Source: Paramacrobiotus metropolitanus (lineage: Eukaryota; Tardigrada; Eutardigrada; Parachela; Macrobiotidae). Taken from it: a stretch of DNA of 64,000 nucleotides. The stretch lies in the NCBI RefSeq assembly GCF_019649055.1, contig NW_026570226.1, forward strand, positions 2,356,001-2,420,000. Reading direction: 5' to 3'. The notes beneath the pieces are model-generated. The model was not told the origin of the DNA. It saw nothing but the letters and a program-made list of their open reading frames with translations, and searched no databases. Shown here piece after piece: positions 10,002-49,205 of the stretch. Every line of letters begins with the position of its first letter. Position 1 is the stretch's first letter. Made by a program: the position numbers and the translations under genes.

Positions 10002-13000
10002 ATGACACATACGGCACTCGCTGTAATAATTTTTCTGAATACTTATTTAGCAAATAGCCAAATAAATCTAGTCTCCATATCGTCCGGGCGTAGTGGACAC
10101 AGTGGGTACAGAGTCATGGTGCCGCTGTTTCAAACCGTCGCCGCCGAATTAGAAGACAGCTATGCGACAACCCATAATATCTCGGTGACAACCAAATACG
10201 GGGATCCCGTAATTCCTTGCACGGATATGGAATTAGATTTGATTATGGCGAGTTTACAGGACTTGTACAGGGATGGACAACTACACGAGAACGGATTAAC
10301 GGTTATAGTACCGTCCACCGGTAGGCGGATACGATCACATGCATGACTTCCCAGGTTGTAAAGGTTAAAAGCGTCTTTGATAATTCTGGGTGTGTTTGGC
10401 AGTGTGCGGCAATTATTTTCTACATGTTGGAGATTTTGCTCGGGAACTGGACATCACGGCGCTTTCATGGTACGATGAAATGCGTCATGACTTTTACCGC
10501 TACCATTCATTACTGCTATTCAGTGGGATTTTTTAAATGTTGCAAAACTTCTGAAAACACAAAAAGTCGGAATTAAAAAGTAATGTTTTGTTACGCCTGT
10601 GTGAGGAGAGAAGCGGCTCATATACAGCGACAAAGTCTTTCAAGGATTTTCAACACACTGCGCCGTGGTGCAGTGTTCAATTCACCCATCGGTGCATTTT
10701 TCGGCCGTTTCTCGGTTTCCCTCGGATGGCGCCCTGCTTTGACCTGTAACAAATAAGTTTTCTTCAAGCTTTTTGTAAACCGAAGTAATAAAATTTGGTC
10801 AGAATACGCTTATCTAAAATTATTAAGTTCCATTAATAAACTGAACTTTTTTAGCACTTTGAATGATCCGTTTCTCACGGACCCCATTCGCTTTCCATCG
10901 GTAATATCGGCCGGTCCTTTGAACCTGCCCATGTTCGGCCACTCATTCCTGAGCATTATGGAGAATTTTCAATGGCATTCGGTGGCTGTATTAATCGATC
11001 GCATGTCAACGGATACGATCAATGCCCTGCGCTACAATCAGACATGCCGGTATTTTCTGGAAGCATTGTCCGGTTCCAATGTACAGGTGCAGCGGATTAA
11101 TTTGGACTCGGATACGACGAATAGTGACGTCAACGGATGGCATTTTGCCTTACGGCTCGCTTCCGATTACACCAGAAGTAAGGGAGATATGTAACATAAT
11201 TTTTGGAAATTAAGGGAATCGCTGTGGTGTAAAATGAACTTTATCCGCACCTTATAGCTTTGTAATCGATCATCCTCGATTTCTTGTAGTTATTGTCTCA
11301 TGTACCACGTCCATCCGGCAGCATCGATTTCTGGTATATGTGATGAAAAAAGATGTTTGCGAATTATATTATTTTGTATTACATAAACCGAAGCTGTGTT
11401 TCTAGGCGGTTGCGGAAGAGCTTGGCTTTGCCAATGGTCAATACGTAAGCAACAGTCTTTTGCGCTGCAACTTTTTTTAAATTTTTCAGAAAGCTTAGCC
11501 TGCTTACGACTATTAAGATATTTCTCTGATAGGGAGTTTTAGAAAAGCATGTTTGGATTCATGAGAAAATAATTGCACACGTTGCTAATCACTAATTTAA
11601 TTTTATTGAATTCGTCTCTTGTAATTCACTGTTGACGATAGGTCCCTTTAATAGGCTTTCATTTTTCCGTATTCGTTTCTTGTTCCGGATGATCTGCCAT
11701 TTACATGCGGTGGAATGCGTTCGCACAATCAATCATGCGACTCGGTAACGGTCATGTCGGTACAGAACCCCGTTTAAACTTTAAAGTAAGAAGCTGATTT
11801 CTGCCGTAAATTGCAGAAAACACTTAAAGCATTGCAGAGCACGCTGATTATTCAACCCACCTTTCCCAACTGGACCATGGTAGCCACAACGATGCAGAAA
11901 ATTCAACAACGCCGTCAGGAGCTGTTTAACATTGCCGATCGTGACATGGAGGTGCACCATTATGTAACCTATCGCCGACATATTCAATCCCATTCAGAAA
12001 CCTGCATTTTATTTCCAGAGTAACCAGTTTGCTGCTTCTTGTCTCGAAGCACTGGAAAGCGTAGCAAAGGTCAGTGGTGCAACTTGGTCGAGCCGTTAAC
12101 CGCTACAGTAATAAATTTCATGAACGGTTCAAGCAAATTCCAGAAATTATAGTCAGGTATTTGCAGACCTACGATCGACATTATGAACGCTTTGCCGGCA
12201 TGACCACCATCAGCGGACGGTTGTTTCGCCACTACTTTGCTAACTCGACATTTGACCTGGCTTCGAAGACCGTACGGTACAGTGAAGGCCTCCGCGTCAG
12301 CGAAGTGCAGATACTAGGTTTTGATGCAGCATCCAGCGTTTTCAAGGTACTTTAATATCTGCCTGTAAAAACGCTTTTTCTGTAATATAAATCGCAGAAC
12401 AAACACTTGCACACTACGTAAATTTTCTACATTGTTCAGCAATCTGCACGAAAAATAATTTCTATAAATGTATGGATTAATGGTATCAAATCAAGTTTAA
12501 GCGGTTGCTGGCTGTCTTTCCTAGGTGCTTTTCACAATGAACAGCAAAGACAAGATCTTAGGCAGCACCGATTCGGGCTTTATCTGGATGAACGGGAGCG
12601 CACCTTTGGATCGGCCAAAATGCGGTCTCCGCAACGATTTATGTTTGGATCACTCCGTGACCTATGGCAGCGTCATAACCGCGATAGGGATTACCTTATT
12701 GTTCGGCATAGCGGTTTTTTACGCTGCCCGGTGAAACTCGCTGCCCATTGCCCATTTCATGAATGCTTAAAACTGAAACATTAATTTTGTTTTAAAGGCG
12801 AAAGTGTGGCACGGAGTACGGCGGGGATGCCTGGTGGATCATCTCACCCCGGGAACTGGCATTTGACGACGAATGGCCAATCTCAGTAGCCAAAAGCCAT
12901 GTTGCCGAACGGCTACGCGTGCCATCATCGTTCTCCGCCGTGAAGAGCAATGTCGGCCGCACTGCGAAATTGAGGAGTACCAAATGCTGGATCACGAAGA

Positions 13001-15515
13001 TGGATTACCCTGCCACTGGGCGGGTGATGTCGTATAGTGAAATATCGAAAATTATGAGCACGGTACGCACTTCAATCTCACATCCAGAATGAAACATTCA
13101 TTTTAAAAGCCAAAGTACAGTATACCTAGTTTAGGCGCGGGGACTACGTCACACTAATATCAACGCAACATTCGGATTATGCTTAGAAAAACCATGCATA
13201 GTGGAGGATTATGTGAGTCGAGGTTCCCTGGCGGATTTCCTAGCGGATGCCCATCGAATGGACAGTGAACTTATGCTGTCCTTCATCACCGATTTAACCC
13301 TGGTAAAATTTTCCCTAAATTATCTGAAAGCACAGTTATTTCTTTGCTAAAATTTTTGCTAGAAAAATCAGTTTTAACATCACCTGTGTAATTTTGCCGA
13401 CAGGGTTTGCATTTCCTCCACAAATCGGCGCTGCATTTTCATGGCAGTCTCCGGTCGACCAAATGCTTACTCAACCAATGGTTTTCACTACGCATCGGCG
13501 ACTGTTTGAACGACAAAATCAACGGTGCTTCGCTACGGGTTAGTGCGCGTGCCAACCAAAATGTGGTCTATGCCAGAAAGCTCCTGTGGACCGCACCAGA
13601 AGTACTGCGGAAAGACAAGCCCAAGAGTGCCGCTTCCGATATTTATTCTTTGGGCATTATGACCCATGAGATTCTCTATCAACTTGGACCGTTTACGCTG
13701 GGTCCGGTGGCTGACATCTCTCGCTTGGCAGCCCTCGGTAGAAAATTGTTAAATATTTTTAATTAAATTTTAATAACATTCTTTAGTCAGATACACATTA
13801 TAAATGAATAATTTACGCTGTATATTTACGTGATCCCTGGAAAACCATTACAAATTATCAGGAGTAAGGCTAACTGCAAAATTTCCCAGAGTATGTTTTC
13901 GATGATCCTTTCAGATGTCATCACCAAGGTCAAACAAACCACTGCAGCTGACCGCATGTTTCCCTGCCGTCCGTTCGTGCCGGTGCTGACCGGCTCCGCA
14001 CAGACAGACCGACTAGTCAGACTAATGCAGCAGTGTTGGGACGAACAGCCGGAATGTCGGCCAAAAATCGCACAGATTAAACAAAGTATCAGCAACATCT
14101 TACAAGTGGAGAGTTTAGACACGGCAGCGTCCCTGATTGATCGCTTGATCAAACGCCTGGCCAGCTATCACGCTGAGCTGGAACACTTGGTCACAGAGCG
14201 CACCCAAGAATATGTAGCCGAAAAACGAAAAAGCGATTTAATCCTGCTAGAGATCTTTCCAAAGTACGTACATATTACCAAGTTCTGCAACGCTAACGCT
14301 TTCTTGAATGTACAAGGTGTTCGTGCACGTACAGACCGTACGTACTCTGTACAATTTCAGGGGGTATGGTCTTTTCACCACAACTTTTATTGCTCGTTAC
14401 GCAACCAATTTATTCTTTGTTTATAGAAGTACTAATGCAGTAATTGTAAGAGCATGTGAGAGTAAGTGTTCAAAAACCGTGGCATCGTGGCTCGAAAACC
14501 GGCTTCTAGGTGTAGGCTGGAACACCTGGTTTGATTTTGTGACTAAACTGGGCCTCGACATCTCCATTAAATTATTGATCAGCTGGTCTACCGGCTTAAC
14601 GTTACAATCGAAAAAACGTTGCAAACAAAATTTTGGAATTTTAATAGTTAAGTTCATTTGGCAGGTCGGTGTTCGAACGGTTGCGCTGTGGTATTTTCGT
14701 GACGCCAGAGATTTACGACAGCGCCACGGTTATGTTTTGCTCCGTTCTGGGATACGAGCAGGTTTTAGCTACGGACTCCGTCGCCAGGTTCACTGAGCTA
14801 CTGGATAAAGTCTACACGGCATTTGACTTGGCGCTGCGCTCTTTCGATGCTTACAAAATGGAGACCATCGGAGTAACATATATGGTAACCACTAATATTT
14901 TTAAAAGATTACAAGATTTAATAAGAAGTAAACAATTACAGGTTGTTAGCGGAGTGCCAGATCGCAACGGTCACCGGCACTGCGAAGAAATCTGCCGAGT
15001 GGCGCTGCAGTTCCGTGCGCTCTTTCTGAAACTGTATTTTAACGGACCAATCCAGCTACGATGTGGAATCGATTCCGGTGCACAAGAAAAAGCAATCTTT
15101 AGTAAAAAACGTAATGTATTTTTTATCGGTTGAACCCGTAATAGGACCAGTTGCGGCTGGAATCGTCGGACAGAAGCGACCGCGATACTGTTTGTAAGTT
15201 TGTTGCTGACCGTTCCCTGACAATTATCACAGTAAGTTTAAGAAAAACGTTTTATTAACATCGTGTTTCGTTATTTTGATAGATTTGGTGACACCATCAA
15301 CTGCGCCTCGCGTATGGATAGCAGCGGTACTGGCGGATTTATACATCTTAGTGAGACGGCCGCTGATTTGGCGGCATGTGCCGGACTGCGTGTCCGCCCT
15401 CGTGGCACGGTTTCTATCAAGGTACATTACGCCAGCAATGTTTTAGGAACAATTTTTTTCCGACACGTTCATCTGTAGGGCAAAGGTGAAATGCGGACGT
15501 TTTATCTGGATTGAC
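10002..15515 (+). CDS. Receptor guanylyl cyclase, catalytically degenerate, 19 exons
   Basis: Exons: 10002-10320, 10403-10469, 10855-11177, 11290-11333, 11406-11444, 11655-11759, 11817-11951, 12019-12069, 12167-12346, 12525-12730, 12798-13062, 13135-13302, 13404-13737, 13915-14263, 14665-14884, 14942-15077, 15145-15193, 15283-15421, 15480-15515. All join in phase, giving 3165 nt and 1054 aa with no stop. Order: signal peptide (1-20), ANF-receptor ligand-binding domain (20-440), DRPKCG juxtamembrane motif, one TM (about 467-488), kinase-homology domain (500-800; LRHTNINATFGLCLE, SRGSLADF, LLWTAPEVLR, SDIYSLGIMTHEIL), coiled-coil linker, cyclase domain (870-1050; YDSATVMFCSVLGY, KMETIGVTYM, YCLFGDTINCASRM). 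The two metal-binding Asp are Ser888 and Val932, while the guanine-selecting Glu and Cys and the transition-state Asn and Arg remain. By family knowledge it should not make cGMP alone. It may bind ligand and dimerise with an active cyclase. Confidence 0.9.
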
Positions 15516-24544: not shown

Positions 24545-26494
24545 CTGTGTTGTCGACTCAAGTTGGCACCCTTTTTTACAGTACAGCAAATCTATGCTAT
24601 AAAGCTCTGTGCGCCGTGCAGGCGTGCACTTGAATTGCCCGCACAGTGGGAAACATACTTACAGGGCGGCTGGCAGCGACTGCCGCCAAAAAAACCCCTG
24701 TCCGTTAACAACGACAATTAGCATTTTAAAATTTGATAACTGGCAAAGATTGTTTGTTTTTTGCTGGGATATCTTTTTTTAACTAATATGACGAAACAGT
24801 ATAGTTCTGAATTCGTGAAAAGCATCATGCTTAGTTTCCAGGCATCAGGTCTTTCTCCTCGCAAGTTTGCCAAATCTCAACCACATGTTTCGGAAACAAC
24901 ACTTCGACGGTGGATTTCGTGAGTTTTCATTTCATTTTTCACAGTAAGTATACTGACGTAAGAAAATGTTTCAGAGAATTGTGAAAAGGCATCCCTGTCG
25001 GTAAAGGGAAAAAGCGCAGACGACGCAGCGGTCGCGGTTTCCAGCACATCGATCCGCCTCTGACGAAATGGATACTCGAGCAGTTTGAAAAGGGCCTGTG
25101 TGTGACTAACGACATGATTAAAGAACATGCGCTGTTGTTAGCTTGTAATCCAGCGTTCAAGGCTTCTTAAGGATGGCTGGTGGATTTCAAAAAGCGAAAT
25201 AAACTGGTCTATCGCGCAGCTACGCACATATCCCGCAAGCAGGGAATGACACGGGAGGATATTGTGAGTAAACGTAATTTTAAATTTTCCAGTAAATGTG
25301 AAGACAAACCAGTTGTCTGATAATTTATTGTGTATTATATTAGGAAGAGGAAGAACAGTATATCGATGCGATGATAGATTTGAACGCAGCGCTGGAGTGC
25401 GGTAGCGATGCGGGTGACCTGAAGCGGATCCTGAACATGGATCAGACGATGGTCCGGCTGGTTGCGCCTAAGCTTCACTCCGTAGTGCCCGTCGGCTCCA
25501 AGCAAGTGAGGTTAATTCGCCCACCAGGAGACAAAGAAGGTTTTACGGTCACATTGACAGTGTCGGCCGATGGTTCCCTGTTGCCGGCCGTTATTGTGTT
25601 CAAGGGTGCAGCAGAAACAGAAAAGCTTTCAGATGGGATAATGCGTTCGCTAAAGGCACCCACAAATATAATTATTGCAAGCTCAAAATCTGCGTGGTGG
25701 ACTGAAGATTTGGACCATGAGTGGATCGGCACGACGTTTCCTTTTGACGGTCGCGTCAGGACCTTGATTCGCGATCAGTATACAGTCCACAAAATGGATT
25801 CTAGTGCCGAGATGCTGGAAGAGCGTAGTGTTTCGCAATTGTTAATTCCAGCTGGGCAGACCGGCCGCTACTCCGCATTGGATGTGGGAATAAATAAAGC
25901 GTTCAAAGCCTTCTATAAGACTGAATATGAGAAGTGGCGCCGAGAGCAAAATCCAAATAACTGCACCAAGTCCGGGTATCTCAAAAAGCCGAATCGTCAA
26001 GATTTTATCGATATGGTTTCGCGAGCAGCGTACAAAATTACTCCGGAATGTATAAAGAGTTCATTTCGTGCAGCGGGAATAATTACAGCAGAGAACTATG
26101 CTGAAATCGATGAAAATCATGTTCCTGATGAGCAACCCAGTGAACTGGAAATTAGCCTTTTCGATCCTCAGTTACTGAATGGAGAATAACGTCCTGTTGT
26201 TTTTTGCATATTCTTTCAAAGTGATGTTAGGTTTTCTTATGTTTGGGGTTTATTATGCAGAATTGATGATCGTTTATTTGTGTACAGAGTTCTGTTTTAC
26301 GACGAATAAAGCGAAGTTCACGTAGCCATTCTTAATGGTCGGTCGTGTTTTGGCGGCAGTCGCTGCCAGCCGCCCTGTAAGTATGTTTCCCACTGTGCGG
26401 GCAATTCAAATGCACGCCTGCACGGCGCACAGAGCTTTATAGCATAGATTTGCTGTACTGTAAAAAAGGGTGCCAACTTGAGTCGACAACACAG
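24545..26494 (+). mobile_element. pogo/Tigger-type DNA transposon, full length with ~147-bp TIRs, TA target site
   Basis: The left end (24545-24691) and right end (26348-26494) are inverted copies with, by eye, one mismatch up to the GCCGCCAAAA block. Each end begins CTGTGTTGTCGACTCAAG and is flanked by TA (24543-24544 and 26495-26496), as for Tc1/mariner-pogo elements. It contains one three-exon transposase gene, 24788-26189. The element lies in intron 3 of monooxygenase copy B. Near-identical TIRs argue for a young insertion. Confidence 0.9.
24788..26189 (+). pseudogene. pogo-like transposase with two in-frame stops
   Basis: Exons 24788-24918, 24975-25263 and 25344-26189 join in phase; about 421 codons. 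Exon 1 encodes an N-terminal psq/CENP-B-like helix-turn-helix (MTKQYSSEFVKSIMLSFQAS). Exon 2 carries the second DNA-binding half (WLVDFKKRNKL) but has a TGA at 24982-24984 and a TAA at 25168-25170. Exon 3 is a fully open DDE domain: first Asp in ILNMDQTMV, second in TLIRDQYTVHKM, third in SALDVGINKAFKAF (DDD type). With two nonsense codons it is probably inactive as it stands. Its intact TIRs could still be mobilised in trans. Confidence 0.8.
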
Positions 26495-26800
26495 TACATA
26501 AATTATAAAATGCTAACTTTTCTCATTTTGAATTAACTAAATCTTAGGAAGGGTTGAAGTTGTCACATTAGAAGTTTTTCGCTGAGACACCATACCCATA
26601 CCTTAACCATCTCTTATCAAATAAAATAACGCTATGGTAAGAAAGTGCTAACCGCCATTTCGCTTCGCCTCGATTAGTCTTTCCCTAACTATACACAATA
26701 TTTGGCCACATTAGGCAATATTTTACGGATATTATTTTTGAATCTTATCTTGTCACTACTCTCATAATTTTTATGTGCATCATTGAATACGATTCGGAAA

Positions 26801-27823
26801 ATGAAATTTATTTACCTTTTTCTTCTATATAAACGCAAAATAATTTCCAGACGCAGGTTTCTTTTACTACTCTGTATACTGAAAAAGCGAAAACTGCGAG
26901 ATGACTGGGTTCCGTTCGCTTTTGATCCGAGCGTCTTCACCGAACGAGAAAGCTGGCGATATTTTCGATTCACCATGCCCGAAATTGAAGATCTCCAAAA
27001 GCGTCTTCTTATCCCCGACGTTGTGGTAACTGCTGAACGTGATCGTGCGTCAGGTGTGGAAGCACTGTGCATTCTGTTGCGCCGATTTGTGTATCCTTCA
27101 CGCTGGATAGACCTGCGTATGTTTTTTGGGCGATCAGAGTGCAGTCTATGCCGAATATTTATGTGGGTTTTAAACCACATTGACAGGACTTTTAGATGGC
27201 TTGTGGAAGAGTGGAATCAGACCTGGCTTACTGAAGAGGATTTCGTTATGTATGCCGGTGCCATAGCTGCAAAAGGTGGTGTCTTACGCGGTTGTTTTGG
27301 TTTCATCGATGGGACTGCGCGACCAATCAGCCGTCCAAGATTTTTCCAGTGCCAGTGTTTTAGTGGTCACAAGCGTCACCATTGCTCGAAATGGCAGGCT
27401 ATTTTACTCCCAAATGGGATGAATTGCAGTTTGTACGGCGGACACCGAGGATCCATGCACGACAGCACCCTACTAACTTCAAGCAAGGTTCTCGACGCAC
27501 TGCAGCAGAAGTTTACCACGTTTATTGGTCCAGACAGATTCTGTCTGTATGGTGACTCAGGATACGGAAGAGGCGAGCTTGTCAAAAAACCATTCTCAAA
27601 AGTAGAAGTACTGAATGATCGTCGAAAAAAGGCATTAAACAAAGCTATGTCTCGGGTAAGAGAACCCGCTGAGTGGGGCTTCAAAGAGGTCATTTCTAAG
27701 TTCGCGTTTCTTGACTTTAAAAACCAAATGCGAATGTACGTTAAACCAGTCAACAAACTATACCGTGTAGCTGTTATTCTTATCAATTGTCATAACTGTA
27801 TACATCATAATCAAGCTAGCTAG
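26801..27823 (+). CDS. Harbinger-type transposase (DDE_4 nuclease), intact 340 aa
   Basis: Single open frame from ATG 26801. Catalytic core in order: FGFIDGTARPISRP (first Asp), GGHRGSMHDSTLLT (second Asp), LYGDSGYGRGEL (the conserved 'DsgY'), and EWGFKEVISKF (catalytic Glu region). The QCQCFSGHKRHHCSKWQAI segment corresponds to the 'yysghkk.h..k.q.v' stretch of this family. Length and order fit a complete PIF/Harbinger nuclease, and nothing in the frame is broken. Normally it needs its Myb-like partner for nuclear import and DNA binding. Confidence 0.85.
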   Translation: MKFIYLFLLYKRKIISRRRFLLLLCILKKRKLRDDWVPFAFDPSVFTERESWRYFRFTMPEIEDLQKRLLIPDVVVTAERDRASGVEALCILLRRFVYPSRWIDLRMFFGRSECSLCRIFMWVLNHIDRTFRWLVEEWNQTWLTEEDFVMYAGAIAAKGGVLRGCFGFIDGTARPISRPRFFQCQCFSGHKRHHCSKWQAILLPNGMNCSLYGGHRGSMHDSTLLTSSKVLDALQQKFTTFIGPDRFCLYGDSGYGRGELVKKPFSKVEVLNDRRKKALNKAMSRVREPAEWGFKEVISKFAFLDFKNQMRMYVKPVNKLYRVAVILINCHNCIHHNQAS

Positions 27824-37774: not shown

Positions 37775-39437
37775 CTATTTCGTCATTGCCTTTGGTACCT
37801 CCGTCAAACCGGGACAACTTTGCCTCCCGGCACAGAGCCTTGCGCCTATAACTCCCACCCAGAGCCGCTGCGCACCGCGTCGATATTCTGCGCTCAGCAA
37901 CAGGAACAGAATCTGCAGAGACAGTACTATATATGACATAAAATTTATGTAATTATATGGTCACCGAAAAGAGACACGCATTGGCTAATCAATTAGCGGA
38001 AGAATCGTACATATGCAGATAGCATACAATACCGCAGACGGCAGATCCGAGGCATAATTAAAGTGAATAAAAATTTGAACTGAAATACAGTATTAAAAGG
38101 TTATTTAAGAATATTGAAAGGTTACTGTATCCATTGATGTCAACGGAACCGACAGCTAGCGCGGGCGGTCCTGGGGATTTCTCTGTCCCTTAATATCGTG
38201 TAAATACAGTAAAAGAATATTCATAAGTATCGGCATAATAAAAGCAGGATCATACCGGATTTATAGCATATTCCGCCACCAGGACGGTCCGCATCCAGTA
38301 AGATACCAGCGGATCAGCTGGGCGATCTTTTTGCGTTGCTGCCAGAACAATGACAATGAGCGGCACTTGACTGCACACCGTGCTCCACATGTACGAGGCA
38401 AAAAGCAATTTAGCTTTGGTTACGCGGCGCTTGTAGATGATGATAGATGGCACCGATGGTAACGGTGATAGACGATGCAGTGGTGTAGCATTACTCGCAT
38501 GGATACCGCGATGCCGTCTCCTTAATGTCATCACGGTGAAAATGCTGACGTACAGCATGCCTACGCCACCAATCATGGGCCAGATTAACCTTAACAATAT
38601 TAAATGCCGCTCATATTTCTAAGAAAACTAAAAGCTTCCATATCAAAGATTTGAAGTATCGGAAACTAATATGGCCAATATGACCACTTTTGTTTTGTAA
38701 AATAAAAACAAAATAGCAGCGACCGCATAATCAAAATCTTGCGGAATACAGTATGTATGTGGCCTAGCTCCCGCACCTAGAAGGATAACAGGCAGATACT
38801 GTCCAGCCGTAACGGTAGCCGCCATAATAGAGCGATTGACCGTTCGAATCGTCCCGCACGTCAGTGACGGCTGCATGCCGCTGATCATTCCAGTACCGAA
38901 TAGCGACGGCAGCTTGGCCGACAATACCACCGTCCAGGAAAATACAACACAGCCCACAGTAGCCCTTGGCGAGCTGAGCTGCCTATACCGATGCGGTAGG
39001 ATAAGCGCGACAAAGCGGTTAACGCCCAGAAAGAACGCTGTCCAGTATCCCACCTGCATGAAGACGATTTGGAAGGTCTGGACAAAATTACAGTCTATTT
39101 TCGGTGGCGGTTGAACGATCCAGAAATTAAAGACCGGTGCGGTGCCAAGCGGAAAAATCACGGCGCATAAAACCGTGTCGAGGATCTGTTTATGGGCGAT
39201 GAGCCAACCGGTACCGGTGCGCAATCGCCGGTTTGTGGCGATGGCCAGTAGAATGGAGAGATTTAGAAGCGTTCCTAGACCGCATGCTCCGGCGTAAACG
39301 ATTAGCCAGGTTTTTGTCGCACTGGTAATAACAAACGGTGGAGATGAGAAGTTCCCAACATCGGTCGAATTGTGAGAAAAATTAGATAGCACAGGTGAGG
39401 AACGCCACAATGATAATGCGGAATTTAGAAAAGCCAT
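37775..39437 (-). CDS. Orphan class A-like GPCR 1 (365 aa, 3 exons)
   Basis: Exons 39437-38841, 38618-38256 and 37912-37775 join in phase 0. The ATG at 39437 precedes an N-terminal ectodomain with N-glycosylation sites (NFSHNST). TM1 is KTWLIVYAGACGLGTLLNLS; TM3 ends LGVNRFVALILPHR, with NRF in place of DRY. The loop-2 Cys lies in SLTCGTIRT at the exon 1 end. TM5 LILLRLIWPMIGGVGMLY and TM6 KAKLLFASYMWSTVC lie in exon 2. TM7 ends AINP at the junction with exon 3 (ILFLLLSAEYRRG), giving an NP-(5)-S-x-EYRR motif. The first junction uses a weak donor (acg|gtcaat), chosen because its spacing matches GPCR 2. Related to GPCR 2 at 47932. Ligand unknown. Confidence 0.75.
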
Positions 39438-40974
39438 TGTGTATTGTTCGTTTCAGTAAATAGAAGTATTAGCTATCAACAATGTGATCTGCACATCTGT
39501 CACACCATCTTCCCCAAATTATAATAGACGTTAGAATGCTCGAAAATTGTAGTAAAACGGGAAACACTGCGCAGCACCGCATGACTGCGCTCTCGCAACT
39601 AAATTTCATTCGACTGACGCAGGTCTTCGTTGTTCGCTTTCTCTACTATTAATATGTATACAAGAGCTATTGAAGACTTGCATGCGAGCCAATTAAATCA
39701 AAGCATCGGAGCCAGCGGCGTATATCTACGGCGTTGTGAGATCATCTTTTTCCAGTCTTCACTTCACCATGCCGGGCGTTGATCACTTTATTACTGTGTT
39801 GGTATTATTAAAAACTGTGTATCCGGTAAAACAGCGGAGGCGTGATGAGAGTCATGAGAGAGGGATGAAAATATTGATTCACATCGAGTGGAAACTCTCT
39901 GACTGATTAAGTAAACGGATTTTCATAATCGTTATTTCGGCAAGTTTTCATGGAACCATTACAAACTCTTTTTATCGTTAAGAATTTAAGAACAAGATGA
40001 AAAACTCTGTAAGCTTCAGGAATATTCAAAAAATCGTAGCGTACATCATAATTATTTTATTTATAAAACACGAGTACATTTGAAAATCAAAACCAGTTTT
40101 TAATTATAAAATAGTATTTCGTTTGCCGCTGCCGCTTCTTTGTACTCTTGTGTTCCTTGTTCTTCTTTATAGTCATCGATTAATACCTAAATCTCAGAAA
40201 TAAACGCTCCTTGAGAACAAAACGTTTGTATTGACGAAAATTCTTTCAGCATAACCACAGATATATTTCTTTGTACAAATGAGTATATAACCATAGTCGT
40301 CACAACAAAGCAGCAAAACAGTAACGACAAATAAAAAATACCCGCGCAGTCTAAAAAAAAACAGAAATGGCGCACGAGACAACCGAAATCTAAAAAGTGC
40401 GGTAAGTAACTGCCTTTACCTGTCATTATACTACAATAATATCTAACAACGTTATTTCCCACTGGAACACGTTCGCTATGGCACATTGCGAGTAAATTTA
40501 AACTTTTATGGACATTCTTTTCGTTTTTCCAGGTTTGTACAAATCGAACATCCAACGTGCTTCGTGAATTTCAAAATTTTAACAGTTGTCTTACGCTATG
40601 GACATTTTCTCAATATGTCATTGAAACATAACGACGATGACGATTTTGGCTGAAAAAGTGAGGAACGTCTTTACCAAAAGCGATTCGCGGTGTAGAGAGT
40701 GTTCTGCTAGCAGCTAGAGGCCAAGTGCGTGCGCGCGTATAATGCAGTGCCTTTCTAATTAATTTGACAAAATCATAAGCAGTAAGCGCTTTTGTTTACG
40801 CAATGGTCCTGCGTAATATTATTATCCTAGGAATAGCTTTTTTATTACATCGTGAATACTGCCGCGCCAAATGTATTGTGTGGTGACTGATAGTACTCCT
40901 GATAGTAATTTTATTGTGCATATTGGGAGCATCGGAGGCGTAGCACATTACTGATCTAAAAACAGTAATTACAG
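39438..40974. other. Intergenic, upstream of GPCR 1
   Basis: Presumed promoter of GPCR 1 and then the left flank of the LTR element. The short ORFs near 40190-40555 are hydrophobic but have no recognisable family or start context. I call no gene. Confidence 0.35.
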
Positions 40975-43005: not shown

Positions 43006-45890
43006 TTAAACATGAGCACTACATTGCTCACATTGTGCTTCGATTTTCCACAATTCAGCATTCATCCCAGGCCAATAATAATTCCGCAAAACATACTTAC
43101 GGACTGACCAATAATCATGCAAATTACCAGCATAATAACTCTCATGGCTGTCTCGTAACAAGTCCTGGCGGCTCACATCCGGTACGAACCCACGGTGTCT
43201 ACCGTACCTACCGCCCTTGCTACGGTACACAATGCCACGATAAACATGAAAATCTTTCACGTCCTCTCTTTCATCCCGATTCATCTCCGCCTCGGGATTC
43301 TTGATCATATACTTCAAGCGCTTTACATAAGCACTACCACTTTGCTTCCGACGCCAACCCACACGAGCCTGAGCACCCTCACTGCAAAGCGAGTGCCCTG
43401 TCGGACGGCGTGCTGAGCTGAACTGAACCTGGGAAGCATCGCCCCCACCGCAAGTTTGCTTCCGTGCAGTAAATTCTTGTGCATGTTTATCCTGCACAGT
43501 AAAGGAATTCATTTCCGGCCTACGCATCAAAAACGATCCCAAATTATTGCTTTCGGGATTCCTTCCCATCGACTTTTTCAACATGTAAGCCTTAATCACC
43601 TGATCTGGTGGTTCAGCTGTCACAGGCTTACGAGGTTCCGTGCTGGTGCATTTCTTTCCCACATGCGCACCATGGCATTTAAAACATATCGGTTGTCCGT
43701 CTGGGAAATACCACTTCGTGTAAATAATGGTCACCTGCTTACCATTATCAACTGCACTTCCTTCGGACTTCTTCGACTCACTGCTAGCAGCTTTACCTAT
43801 GCCGTTATCTGTTTCAACTGGCTTCCTGCCAACGAACTGTTTCGACTCAGAGTAACCAGAAATAGGGTTACTATTACGCAGTTTATACTGCAGCTTCAAT
43901 TCTGACAAAAATTCTTCAACATCAGCCACTCTTTTCTCTTCCATGTGCTTGAACCAGAAGAAGCGGTTCTTCTTCAATCCCTGCTTCAGATAATACACAC
44001 GTTCAGATTCGTTCAACTTTTTGAACGACGTAGTGGACCAATCAACATACGAGTTTGGTGTATCGTCACTACTGAAATGACGATCAGCTATCTTATCACG
44101 AACGGCCATCAAATCTTTCTCATCCGAAAAATGTTCTCGGATCATTTTCTTCCATTCAGACTACTTTACCTTCTTATTGGCATCATACTTATCGAGATAC
44201 CAGGTAAGTGCCGTACCAGTAAGGCAGCGCGACAGGCACTTACTGATGACGTCACCATCAGACCAACTGTTGTGGTTTTTACAGTTATCCACACTCTGGA
44301 TAAACTGCTCAACCTTATTCGTATCTGTCTTCCCGTCAAACTTTTCAGGATACATTGTATCCGTCCTGAATGCACCTTTCATAGCATTCGTAAATTTATC
44401 CATATCAAACGGAGCGGAAACAGTACCACCGCCCTTGGCCTCCTGTTCCTTTAAACGACGATCAAGTTCAGCAACCTTTGCTTCCATCTTACTCAAAGCA
44501 GTCGTACTGACTTCTGATATCGTTGGTGAAGGACTACGCGACTCACCCAAACATTCCTGCATATTGTGGGCACGCTCACGCAAGTTCAGAAAATCTTCCA
44601 GCTTCTGGGTATCTTTGACTACAAAGGCAGGCTTATGAACAACACTGTACACCTTTCGTACAGGTTCGGCCATATCCTGTGCTACTGCGCTGCGTCGACC
44701 TGCTTCAACATGCGGGACAAAGTTGACGTCATCTTTTACTGAATGGCGTCTATCAATTCGATCAACTTTCCACTTATCAACAGCAACATTAAATGCTGCT
44801 TGTTCAGCCAGAAAACTCGCATACTTTTTATTCAAGGCAGCTGTGCCTTGTTGAAAACTTTTTTGCGCCTGCTGCTTCTCCAGCTGGAATTTCTGTCTCT
44901 CAGTTGAAGCTTCTCGCTTTCTTTGTTTACATGCTCGAACGCGTCCTGCATCAACTTTGCGTCTCGCGTCCGCATAACAGTAAGCAACTTTACGTCATCC
45001 GTCAACTTCTTTCGATGATCAACACTATCATCGTATTTTTCGACCAAATCGTTATACTTTAAAGCTAGTGCATGATATTGCACCCTTTCTGCATCCAACT
45101 CTTTACGTAACTGATCAACCACAGCCGCGGTTGATGACTCATCGCTTTCTTTGCCAAGCTTCTGACTGTAATGCAAATCAGCGCCCTTATGACGCTGATC
45201 AATAGCAGCCAGTTCCGTATCGCTATCTTCATTATCTCCAGTAACAACAGCTGAATAATCTGGAGCATTATTAATTTGCTCCAAAACCTTATTCATTTCT
45301 GTCAAGTCCAGTTGTTGAGTTACCGTGGTATCTTTCACAGTACCACTCAAACCACTGGCCCACAGAGCATCGCTCTCACTTACTGCAGCTTGCACACCGC
45401 TTTGCTGCACATGCGACCCTGGACGAGCTTTACCGCTGTCTGCTGCAGACTGATCAGGCTTCTTGTTGGCAAGATACAGCATCCATTTGCCATGCAGTTC
45501 AGTGCCATATTGCTGATCATAATCATGCAAGGTCAGATGGATCGTTCGACGGGCGGGAATCTTCCTTCCTGCCTGAATCCACTGATCATAACCTCCTGGT
45601 TTTTCACCACCATTAAGATCATATTCAACCCATTCTTGACTTAATTCTCCAGTACGTGGGAGAACAATTTCCCACCTTTTGCAAAAATCGCCAACCTTTT
45701 CGTCTTCAGGTAGAAACCACTGCACTGTAGGCGGGGATAAATAATCCGCCTTCTTTAACATGGCTTCAAACTCGTCAACATTTATCATCCCTTTTCGACG
45801 GGACGGTTTACTTTTGCCAGTTGACGGCTCTCCTACACCGTCCTCCTGTCCAGCGGTTAATGCTGATGGTTCAATCACTGTACCATCCAT
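43006..45890 (-). pseudogene. Gag-(deleted pol)-integrase remnant of the LTR element
   Basis: Starts at ATG 45890 (MDGTVIEPS..). An N-terminal region rich in Ser, Asp and Gln and a predicted coiled coil is followed by a capsid-like gag core. Core landmarks are WSDGDVISKCLSRCL, TALTWYLDKYD, and after a TAG at 44161-44163, MIREHFSDEKDLMAVRDKI, the usual order of gypsy gag. The zinc knuckle is CFKCHGAHVGKKC. The frame then jumps to a histidine/cysteine (H2C2) integrase motif near the end, without protease or polymerase between. A one-base frame change lies near 44900. Not functional alone. Confidence 0.75.
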
Positions 45891-46712: not shown

Positions 46713-47931
46713 ATACCCATGAGATACTCAGAGCTATGTTTGAGTGTGTCAGTACCTATGTACAGAGAACGGTTCCTAATAGCAACCTCATCAAAATAAG
46801 CAGCTTAATTTTTGCTATAACCAGGTGCAATAATCATTTAGCTCTTACTATGGTGGGAGAGATTATAATATATTTCACACCCTACACGATAACCGAGACT
46901 TGGTATGCTTCCGTTGCACATGCTAAAAATCGCAGTGCTGGGTAAATTTCCGGTGTCGATAACTTATATGACTTTTTTCCAACTGGTCGATGCAACCCTT
47001 TGACAGGCATGACACGTAAAAAGAACCGTCTCAACGCACAAACGGTGCTATGAGCCAAACCACACCCATGACGTAGGACGCATTGGCTGTTCCGTAATTA
47101 ATGTCTCTCTTGTGGCGAACTTGGTTAATCACAGCCGTTGAGGCAATTAAGCGCTTCGATAACTTCTATGGGATTCTACAGTGGCCGAACAATTGAGTTT
47201 TCGCAATTGTAATTTTTCTACCGATGGTGCTGTTGTCAACACGAAGTGTACTAGATCGCACAGTATTTTTAGTTGTGTGCTATAGGAACACATATTTTTA
47301 CGTTATGGTTTCGTGACTGATACCTGAATGTACTGTAATCTGTTGAAAAGCATTGTGCATGAACACAGAGTAATAACGTACAAATATGGATCAAGGCTGA
47401 AACTATTATTATTTTTAAATCCTGGATATTTGTCTTTCCTGCGCTTTAGCTTCAAGAACGTTGCACTGCACGTGACGGTCAGAATGGCGTGACTATTGTA
47501 CCGCTTATCGCTTTGTTTGCGATGTATTAACCTTAAAACTGCAGAGAATCGGGGATCATGGCTGTGCACAACCTTTTCATTCTGGCACCTTTTCTGTAAA
47601 TAGCGTGTTATTGTAGCTGGCGGCAGTGATTAATCCACGGCTATACACTGATTAGTGAATGATACGAGTATTCCTAATCACGGAAACCGGCTTTCAATTA
47701 CTTTCATCTTCCTAAGGACCTGTGTCTCTCCGTTTACATTGTGCGCCTTTCTTCCTTGACTTTTCGGGCGATGGCCGCAATAAAGTCACTGAAACCGGGA
47801 TTCAAGAACCGTCATTCATGGCAAATATGAGATTTTCCTCATCATTACTGCCTACGATATTTCCATACTTTTTACGCAATATGCCGCTTTCCACCATGGA
47901 TTTACGAATACGGACTTTCCGTTAATTAGCG
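46713..47931. other. Intergenic, upstream of GPCR 2
   Basis: Right flank of the LTR insertion and presumed promoter of GPCR 2. No gene or repeat was recognised. Confidence 0.4.
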
Positions 47932-49205
47932 ATGGCGGGTAATAATTCCACACTACTCCGTGCACCGCTAATTTCATCCGCGGAATTATTAACATGGTAC
48001 GGGAGCGCCACCTTGATCAGTATCATCGGAACCTTGGCCGGCATCGCGCTGATGCTCGTCATCATCAAGCAGCACAACTTCCGCGACGGTACCCATCCCT
48101 TAATCGTCCAGCTTCTAGCCGTGGACTGCTTCACTTTAGCCGTTCCTAGCTTCTTCGCGAACACGGAGATCTACCTCATCCAAACCGGCCGCGGCAGTCA
48201 CGTGAACTGCAGCGCCATCTTCTTCCTGCAATACTTTTTAACGTGTGCATCGCACTGGATTCAAGTTTCCTTGGCGCTCAACCGTTGCACCGCGGTATTA
48301 TTTCCCCACAATTTCCGCGCCTGTTCCAGTAAAATCACCATCGCGTTGATGTCTGCTTGGAGCTGGACGTTCCCGTTAGCGCTATCCGTTCCGTATTTGT
48401 TCGGTGTGGGCGCTTCGTACGGACAAGTGATGCCGCTAGGTCACTGTACGCTGTTAGTGAACAATAACACGCTGTTCCTTATATTAAGCTCCCTCGTCAC
48501 GACAGTTCCCCTGTGTATTGAGGGCTTATGTTATGCCATTGTGCTGGTGGCGTTCCGTTGTCAGCAGAAACAAATCCGGCCAACGGCTGCCTCACGCTAC
48601 GATGCTCGCCGGCAGAAACGGCGACGGAAAGAGCGAGCGTTGTCGCTGGTGCTGCTGATATGCTTCCTGTGGTACTTGGTGTGTTATCTGCCTAATACGG
48701 TCATCTCACAATATGTGGCATGGTACTGGCGGACTCATTTGAACGTGTTCCTATGGCTACGGAGTTTGTTCGGACTGGCGCAGGCTGGAACACCGGTGAG
48801 CAAAGATAAACAGGCTGTGCAGCAGTAGAAATGTGTAGTGTCATGGCCGTATCTAAAAGGTTCATCAGATGCGTAGTGTGCGAGTTCTCATGTACAAACC
48901 TAAGCAGTCAGTGGTGTGGGGAGTTTAATAATTTTTTTGGGACATGAGGAATAGTTGTTCATGTTTATATCAGGTTTCTTGTTTACAAATCGATGCTAAC
49001 GTCTGCCTTGGTGTTGCAGTTTATTCTCGTGATGGGCAATGCGGAATTCCGAGTGGGAATGACCCAGCTGTTGACTTTCCGTTGTGTCGCCATTGTCCCG
49101 CTAGGTGGATCGTCCAAGTGGTCCGTATCGCTGCGGGGAGCGACGTCGCGGAAACTGCGCTCCAGTCAAGGTGTCGCCGATCAAAGCACTTCTCAGAAAT
49201 TTTGA
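47932..49205 (+). CDS. Orphan class A-like GPCR 2 (349 aa, 2 exons)
   Basis: Exons 47932-48795 and 49020-49205 join in phase 0 (donor ccg|gtgagc; acceptor ttgcag). The ATG starts MAGNNSTLL, with an N-glycosylation site. TM1 ATLISIIGTLAGIALMLVI; TM2 LIVQLLAVDCFTLAVPSFF; TM3 ends LALNRCTAVLFPH (NRC for DRY); loop-2 Cys in GHCTLL; TM5 LILSSLVTTVPLCIEGLCY; TM6 ALSLVLLICFLWYLVCYLP; TM7 runs over the junction LAQAGTP-FILVMGNAEFR, so TP replaces NP. The basic third loop (RRQKRRRKER) suggests G-protein coupling. It shares the NR-x-x-A-V/L-x-x-PH end of TM3 and the TM7 exon break with GPCR 1, so the two are probably old paralogues now separated by the LTR element. Confidence 0.85.

What the first reader, a model, noticed from the sequence alone, without database searches (positions are those of the whole stretch)
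10002..15515. Intact receptor guanylyl cyclase that has lost both catalytic metal-binding aspartates
All 19 exons join in phase over 1054 codons, so this is not a random pseudogene. Yet the two Asp that bind Mg/Mn in every active class III cyclase are Ser888 (FCSVLGY for FSDIVGF) and Val932 (ETIGVTYM for ETIGDAYM). The guanine-contact Glu and Cys, the transition-state Asn/Arg, the dimer coiled coil and a full ligand-binding domain are kept. That pattern suggests selection for binding or dimerisation without catalysis: a decoy or modulatory receptor.
Basis: partly seen in the sequence, partly recalled or inferred. Interest (0 to 1): 0.8.

Follow-up and report, generated by a model that had tools for sequence, protein, structure and literature searches.

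The report
Half-enzyme receptor guanylyl cyclase needing partner
A water-bear gene makes a cGMP-producing receptor that has lost one half of its active site but keeps the other half, and dozens of related genes show the same one-sided loss, which suggests that these receptors work as mixed pairs rather than as dead decoys.

Summary
A 19-exon receptor guanylyl cyclase (rGC) gene lies at 10002-15514 (+). Both metal Asp positions are Ser and Val; guanine Glu/Cys, Asn/Arg and phosphate Lys remain. The genome matches the tardigrade Paramacrobiotus metropolitanus in assembly figures (inference).

The loss is not unique. Of 198 cyclase gene clusters, 160 receptor-type catalytic domains show all six key residues. 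66 of 160 lack one or both metal Asp, and 66 of 66 keep Asn and Arg; four re-read partial genes agree. Against this, 4 of the 66 changed Glu or Cys. 13 of 160 lack Asn and/or Arg, and 13 of 13 keep both Asp.

All four genes of the window's clade lack both Asp, and omega=1 is rejected for every pair, so purifying selection is supported. One-sided decay fits a beta-like (C2-like) half that completes a site with a partner, as in soluble GC, adenylyl cyclase and C. elegans ODR-1/DAF-11, better than a catalysis-free decoy. Pairing and activity are inferred, not shown; the tree-aware pair tests lacked power.

The parts
10002..15514 (+). whole receptor guanylyl cyclase gene, 19 exons
   Evidence: phase-consistent GT-AG exon chain without stop; Pfam domains; 19-exon paralogue L002
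10002..12346 (+). exons 1-9: signal peptide (by eye) and ligand-binding domain (ANF_receptor, protein 106-419)
   Evidence: exons 10002-10320, 10403-10469, 10855-11177, 11290-11339, 11406-11444, 11655-11744, 11817-11963, 11998-12069, 12167-12346; splice choices in exons 4, 7, 8 and 9 uncertain
12525..12730 (+). exon 10: end of ectodomain and transmembrane helix (hydrophobic stretch judged by eye)
12798..14263 (+). exons 11-14: kinase homology domain (protein 579-811) and dimerisation/signalling helix (by eye)
   Evidence: exons 12798-13062, 13135-13302, 13404-13737, 13915-14263
14665..14884 (+). exon 15: both metal-Asp positions, MFCSVLGY (Asp1 to Ser896) and METIGVTYM (Asp2 to Val940); guanine Glu kept
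14942..15193 (+). exons 16-17 (14942-15077, 15145-15193): LRCGID Arg (third metal-half residue, kept) and RYC Cys (kept)
15283..15421 (+). exon 18: FGDTINCASRM, transition-state Asn and Arg kept; phosphate Lys (last codon) kept
15479..15514 (+). exon 19: GKGEMRTFYLD and stop

Best explanation
The gene makes a full receptor guanylyl cyclase whose catalytic domain is a beta-like (C2-like) half. It cannot hold the two metal ions, so a homodimer should be inactive. In a heterodimer with a receptor cyclase that keeps both Asp, it would bring Glu and Cys (guanine recognition), Asn and Arg (transition state) and Lys (phosphates) to the one complete active site. It would then signal through its own ligand-binding domain. 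Candidate partners in the same genome are metal-intact receptor cyclases, above all those that have lost Asn/Arg and need such a half themselves (L077, L128, L147, L183, L196, L197, L199). Shown: the residue states, purifying selection and the genome-wide one-sided pattern. Inferred: the pairing, the activity and the partner.
For: 66 of 160 readable domains lack one or both metal Asp; N and R are kept in 66 of 66, E in 65 and C in 63, K in 51 of 51 read. Counting only non-acidic replacements: 51 genes with N 51, R 51, E 50, C 49. Four partly read metal-lost genes, re-read out of nine, keep N, R and K. 13 of 160 lack N and/or R and all 13 keep both Asp. A third metal-half residue (sGC alpha R574 type) is neither R nor K in 17 of 62 metal-lost and 0 of 92 other genes. 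Metal loss needs 10-14 events and N/R loss 4-6, in different parts of two trees. Omega=1 rejected for WIN with L001, L002, L198 (2dlnL 323, 399, 267, all shared codons) and for the nine closest disjoint metal-lost catalytic-domain pairs. Isolated human sGC alpha or beta homodimers have no significant activity, the site being shared (abstract and passages of PMC3591389); ODR-1/DAF-11 are described as such a pair (passages of PMC5225109 and PMC8045692).
Against: No expression, binding or activity data. Tree-aware sign tests had too few supported pairs (median p=1); the Fisher tests ignore relatedness and near-copies (L077 and L183 are identical rows). 4 of 66 metal-lost genes changed a residue of the kept half: Cys in L039, L045, L193, Glu in L107 (L193 has a frameshift in the model and the L107 splice there is doubtful). 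N, R and K might be kept for the fold: they are invariant among intact genes too. The N/R-lost class is small; some members are weakly read (L012, L057, L184) or changed only one of the two (L091, L154, L184), and L200 carries a stop. The window gene keeps the third metal-half Arg, which a pure beta half need not. No partner is identified. dS is saturated in the window-clade comparisons, so only the rejection of omega=1 counts there. [quoted passage not shown]
Confidence: 0.6

Rival explanations
1. Catalysis-free modulatory receptor: it binds ligand and dimerises, acting as decoy or dominant-negative partner of active receptors.
For: Both metal Asp are lost with ectodomain and kinase homology domain kept; purifying selection over the length; 4 of 66 metal-lost genes changed Glu or Cys.
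Against: Does not predict that N and R stay in 66 of 66 metal-lost genes while a third metal-half residue decays, nor the mirror class that lost N/R.
Confidence: 0.2
2. Still an enzyme alone: other acidic side chains or water-mediated binding replace the Asp, so homodimers keep weak activity.
For: The other six active-site residues compared are as in GC-A. Some relatives carry Glu at one or both positions (L039-L042 at both), so tolerance may exist in the family.
Against: Here the replacements are Ser and Val, poor metal ligands, in both protomers of a homodimer. No structure was modelled.
Confidence: 0.08
3. GTP-binding pseudo-cyclase: the kept half binds nucleotide as an allosteric switch, without turnover.
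For: Guanine Glu/Cys and the phosphate residues Arg/Lys are kept.
Against: The transition-state Asn should not be needed for mere binding, yet it is kept in 66 of 66.
Confidence: 0.08
4. Young pseudogene in early decay.
For: Some family members carry frameshifts (L022, L131, L159, L193) or a stop (L200).
Against: No stop or frameshift in the window gene; all four clade members lack the Asp and omega=1 is rejected in every pair.
Confidence: 0.04

Closest known systems
C. elegans ODR-1/DAF-11 and other nematode rGCs proposed as obligate heterodimers (Morton 2004, as told in PMC8045692 and PMC5225109; passages seen)
   Same: receptor cyclases that lack GTP-binding or Mg-coordinating residues and are thought to share one site
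   Different: there one tested pair among 27 rGCs; here 66 of 160 fully read domains of one genome lack a metal Asp and 13 lack Asn and/or Arg, with several independent losses
soluble guanylyl cyclase alpha/beta
   Same: beta keeps E, C, N, R; a solved sGC beta-1 (6pas_B) has Gly at Asp1; solved sGC alpha chains read VTLANKF for VNTASRM, with the T and K also seen in L077/L183/L200 and L128
   Different: cytosolic haem protein without this ectodomain; 6pas_B keeps Asp2 (VETVGDKYM), while the window gene lacks both Asp
transmembrane adenylyl cyclase C1/C2 (residue roles partly recalled)
   Same: one-sided split of one catalytic site; the window gene resembles C2
   Different: C1 and C2 lie in one chain and use ATP
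natriuretic peptide receptor GC-A (NPR1)
   Same: domain order and closest solved relative of the catalytic domain
   Different: GC-A keeps all eight residues compared; mammalian rGCs are homodimers (PMC5225109 passage)
NPR-C clearance receptor (recalled)
   Same: receptor of the family without cyclase activity
   Different: NPR-C has no kinase-like or cyclase domain; the window gene has both

Membership tests
animal receptor guanylyl cyclase | ANF-type ligand-binding ectodomain | tested here: met
   PF01094, E=4.7e-14
animal receptor guanylyl cyclase | single transmembrane helix | not tested
   hydrophobic stretch in exon 10 seen by eye; no predictor run
animal receptor guanylyl cyclase | kinase homology domain | tested here: met
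   PF07714, E=1.4e-24
animal receptor guanylyl cyclase | class III cyclase domain nearest to rGCs | tested here: met
   PF00211, E=2.1e-44; best solved relatives GC-A and GC-C
animal receptor guanylyl cyclase | complete active site in one chain (homodimer-competent) | tested here: not met
   Asp1 is Ser, Asp2 is Val
beta-like/C2-like half of a heterodimeric cyclase | metal Asp lost | tested here: met
beta-like/C2-like half of a heterodimeric cyclase | E, C, N, R, K kept | tested here: met
   window gene: all five as in GC-A
beta-like/C2-like half of a heterodimeric cyclase | complementary partner genes in the same genome | tested here: met
   13 of 160 keep both Asp but lack N and/or R; 8 of them lack both, with R to K (L077, L128, L147, L183, L196, L197, L199, L200; L200 has a stop)
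beta-like/C2-like half of a heterodimeric cyclase | inactive alone, active in the pair | not testable with these tools
   needs expression and a cGMP assay
non-catalytic decoy receptor | drift of the catalytic residues that remain | tested here: not met
   N and R in 66 of 66 metal-lost genes, K in 51 of 51 read; but Glu or Cys changed in 4 of 66
non-catalytic decoy receptor | lowers partner signalling | not testable with these tools
   no functional data

The most novel reading that the evidence does not exclude
This tardigrade has turned receptor guanylyl cyclases into a large split-enzyme system. At least 198 cyclase gene clusters hold many receptors that are only half an enzyme: beta-like halves (66 of 160 read) and a smaller set of alpha-like halves (13 of 160). 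They become active only in mixed pairs, so the pair is the sensor and two ligands can be read as a coincidence. Receptors of one lineage have repeatedly dropped the metal half, those of the other the transition-state half.
Probability: 0.4. Interest if true: 0.78.

Novelty: new variant of a known kind. Interest (0 to 1): 0.6.

Why it matters
Receptor cyclases with missing catalytic residues are easily read one at a time as dead or odd. Here a single genome offers repeated losses of the metal half, none joined with a loss of Asn or Arg among 160 read domains, and a mirror class. That makes the proposal of obligate receptor-cyclase heterodimers (made for a few nematode genes) testable at scale by co-expression, and suggests a combinatorial receptor set in a tardigrade. 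It also warns against calling such genes pseudoenzymes from the missing Asp alone.

Tried and rejected
Reading the gene as unique: rejected; 65 other genes of 160 lack a metal Asp, and the nearest three (L001, L002, L198) lack both.

Pseudogene: made unlikely by the open 19-exon model and by selection.

Possible counterexample L120: a raw stretch reading FGDALNTAGIE seemed to lose Arg in a metal-lost gene. The wider locus L201 shows that it lies in the intron, without an acceptor AG just before it; the modelled exon reads FGDAVNTASRM.

Phylogenetic sign tests (independent pairs) for metal loss against R574 loss and against N/R loss: too few supported pairs, median p=1. The two parts of the tree have only moderate support (SH-aLRT 56-91 as printed), so I rest on counts, not on the split.

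Rows left out: 9 of 198 as not receptor-type (L050, L088, L089, L090, L105, L115, L149, L150, L157; L050 and L089 checked against solved structures, the rest judged by motif and score from memory) and 29 of 189 with at least one residue unread. Nine of these 29 lack an Asp with N/R unread (L013, L016, L021, L085, L109, L117, L120, L124, L136); four were re-read (L109, L117, L120, L124), five were not. L023 has Ser at Asp2, Asp1 unread, and keeps N and R. The 160 still hold four genes with a frameshift in the model (L022, L131, L159, L193). For the second tree I dropped L022, L131, L159, L193 and L184 and added GC-A and GC-C. The cluster count is a lower bound: each search scored 150 candidates and listed 150 rows, and later searches showed clusters that I never fetched.

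Structure prediction was not run: a spliced protein is not a plain translation of the DNA, and I did not test that rule. Paper searches for a tardigrade cyclase expansion listed none by title or abstract start. Of the listed papers I saw passages of PMC1435932 (no homologues of the nematode-specific GC genes in tardigrade ESTs) and PMC6660194 (a guanylyl cyclase eclosion hormone receptor in tardigrades); the main text of PMC11191345, a P. metropolitanus transcriptome paper, has no word beginning with guanyl. Only open-licence papers are held.
Full report
WHAT IS THERE. The window lies at C6:2356001-2420000 of G000, a genome of 169.8 Mb in 533 contigs. Its size and its C1 contig length of 4,484,719 lie close to the published Paramacrobiotus sp. 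TYO assembly (170,483,395 bases, longest scaffold 4,484,941; passages of PMC8277472). I therefore take the organism to be the tardigrade P. metropolitanus; this is an inference. At 10002-15514 (+) 19 exons with GT-AG introns join in phase without a stop and code for 1062 residues by my joins, give or take up to about 16 codons of uncertain splicing in the ligand-binding part. Pfam finds the ligand-binding region, a kinase-like domain and the cyclase domain. The nearest solved relatives of the catalytic domain are GC-A and GC-C.

THE MISSING RESIDUES. Compared with GC-A, Asp1 is Ser and Asp2 is Val; Glu, Cys, Asn, Arg, the phosphate Lys and the Arg of the LRCGID stretch are the same. In class III heterodimers the two Asp and one Arg come from one subunit, and the base-reading residues, Asn/Arg and Lys from the other. 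For human sGC the paper names D486, D530 and R574 of alpha and R552 and K593 of beta, and says that homodimers are inactive because no full binding site can form (passages of PMC3591389; the roles of Glu, Cys and Asn are partly recalled).

THE GENOME-WIDE TEST. Two searches gave 198 cyclase gene clusters including the window gene, a lower bound. I fetched the other 197 and read all 198 with a spliced aligner written for this. Nine were set aside as not receptor-type; of 189, 160 show all six residues. Of these, 81 are intact at the metal and Asn/Arg positions, 41 lack Asp1 only, 13 lack Asp2 only, 12 lack both, and 13 keep both Asp but lack Asn and/or Arg. Metal-lost genes: 66 of 160. Asn and Arg are kept in 66 of 66, Glu in 65, Cys in 63, Lys in 51 of 51 read. 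With Glu counted as a possible metal ligand, 51 remain, with N 51, R 51, E 50, C 49. No gene of the 160 lacks both a metal Asp and Asn or Arg; the Fisher test gives p=0.0008 without correction for kinship.

RESULTS AGAINST. Four of the 66 metal-lost genes changed a residue of the half that I call kept: Cys in L039, L045 and L193, Glu in L107. L193 has a frameshift in the model, and the L107 splice at that place is doubtful; L039 and L045 stand. Among columns conserved in intact genes of the same part of the tree, N, R and K stay at 100 percent in metal-lost genes, but so do twelve other columns to which I assign no role, so a fold reason for their retention cannot be ruled out.

PARTIAL GENES. 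Nine of the 29 partly read genes lack an Asp and had Asn/Arg unread, mostly because my pieces ended too early. Four were re-read from wider loci, and all four keep Asn, Arg and Lys; five remain unread. One of the four, L120, had looked like a counterexample and proved to hold a short intronic look-alike of the exon start.

OTHER RESIDUES OF THE METAL HALF. The R574-type Arg was not used to define the classes. It is neither Arg nor Lys in 17 of 62 metal-lost genes and in 0 of 92 others (Fisher p=4e-8, uncorrected; 7 changes on the tree). In the second tree metal-lost lineages hold 38.2 of 84.2 units of length, so seven random changes would all fall there with a chance of about 0.004 (my arithmetic). 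This is a rough guide, not a formal test. The formal independent-pairs tests had too few supported pairs. The window gene and its three sisters keep this Arg.

TREES. Two trees, made without the eight trait columns, place the window gene with L001, L002 and L198 (starred, 99 in both); all four lack both Asp, L198 having Gly and Ala. All metal-lost genes of each tree lie in a part of 125 (or 122) rows that holds no N/R-lost gene; all N/R-lost genes lie in a part of 33 (or 32) rows that holds no metal-lost gene. Support of these two parts is moderate. Metal loss needs 10-12 changes (13-14 if irreversible), N/R loss 4-6. Human GC-A falls within the second part in the tree that includes it.

SELECTION. 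Over 1043 codons the window gene against L002 gives omega 0.078, with omega=1 rejected (2dlnL 399); likewise against L001 (755 codons, 323) and L198 (1032 codons, 267). Synonymous sites are saturated, so the omega values themselves are not reliable. Closer metal-lost pairs with usable dS agree: L014-L015 omega 0.083 at dS 0.76, L044-L132 0.122 at dS 1.15; omega=1 is rejected in all nine metal-lost pairs tried. Nine intact pairs in the same run range from near 0 (saturated) to 0.22.

INTERPRETATION. A receptor that only binds or sequesters should let both halves of its catalytic site go. What is seen is decay of one half and near-strict retention of the other, in several lines, and the mirror image in a smaller class that shows Asn and Arg can be lost without loss of the gene. 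In that class N is T, Q, V or A and R is K in eight genes; sGC alpha chains also have T and K there (VTLANKF). L199 of that class has kinase-like and cyclase domains by Pfam but no ligand-binding match in my model, whose upstream part is weak; in L200 the aligned model spans the full length but carries a stop. The simplest account is that many of these receptors form heterodimers with one composite site, the window gene giving the beta-like half. Precedents: ODR-1/DAF-11 and the proposal for further nematode rGCs (passages of PMC5225109 and PMC8045692). [quoted passage not shown]

NOVELTY. The kind is known (heterodimeric cyclases, sGC, ODR-1/DAF-11). New, as far as the searches show in an open-licence library by titles, abstract starts and the passages read, are the scale in a tardigrade and the two mirror classes in one receptor family.

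Noticed in passing
L201 about 2473-2520 (intron before the exon at 2521): A short look-alike of the FGD-exon start lies in the intron just before the modelled exon, without a splice acceptor directly before it; it mimics a lost Arg.
   Followed up: yes
L200 (C163) against L077 and L183: One of three near-identical Asn/Arg-lost genes carries an in-frame stop in the signalling helix; L077 reads through there.
   Followed up: partly
L039-L042 (C101) and L061, L071-L073, L093-L096, L098, L106, L107: Sub-families with Glu at Asp1 (L039-L042 at both positions): a conservative swap that may still bind metal, or another metal preference.
   Followed up: partly
L014, L015, L017, L020, L022, L024, L029 and relatives: Of 13 genes that lost only Asp2, 9 have also lost the R574-type Arg/Lys, while the both-lost window clade keeps it.
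   Followed up: partly
whole G000: At least 198 cyclase gene clusters, several in tandem; later searches showed more that were not fetched.
   Followed up: partly
window 25344-26189 and 26768-27823 (+), 43006-44160 (-): Reading frames with DDE transposase domains (DDE_1, DDE_Tnp_4) and one with an integrase zinc-binding domain.
   Followed up: no
window 38643-39452 (-) and 47926-48828 (+): Reading frames with rhodopsin/Srx-like GPCR domains, in the same window as the cyclase receptor.
   Followed up: no
L089 and L050: The genome also holds sGC alpha-like and beta-like genes with the usual split: the alpha-like one keeps both Asp and lacks N/R, the beta-like one has Gly at Asp1 and keeps N/R.
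   Followed up: yes
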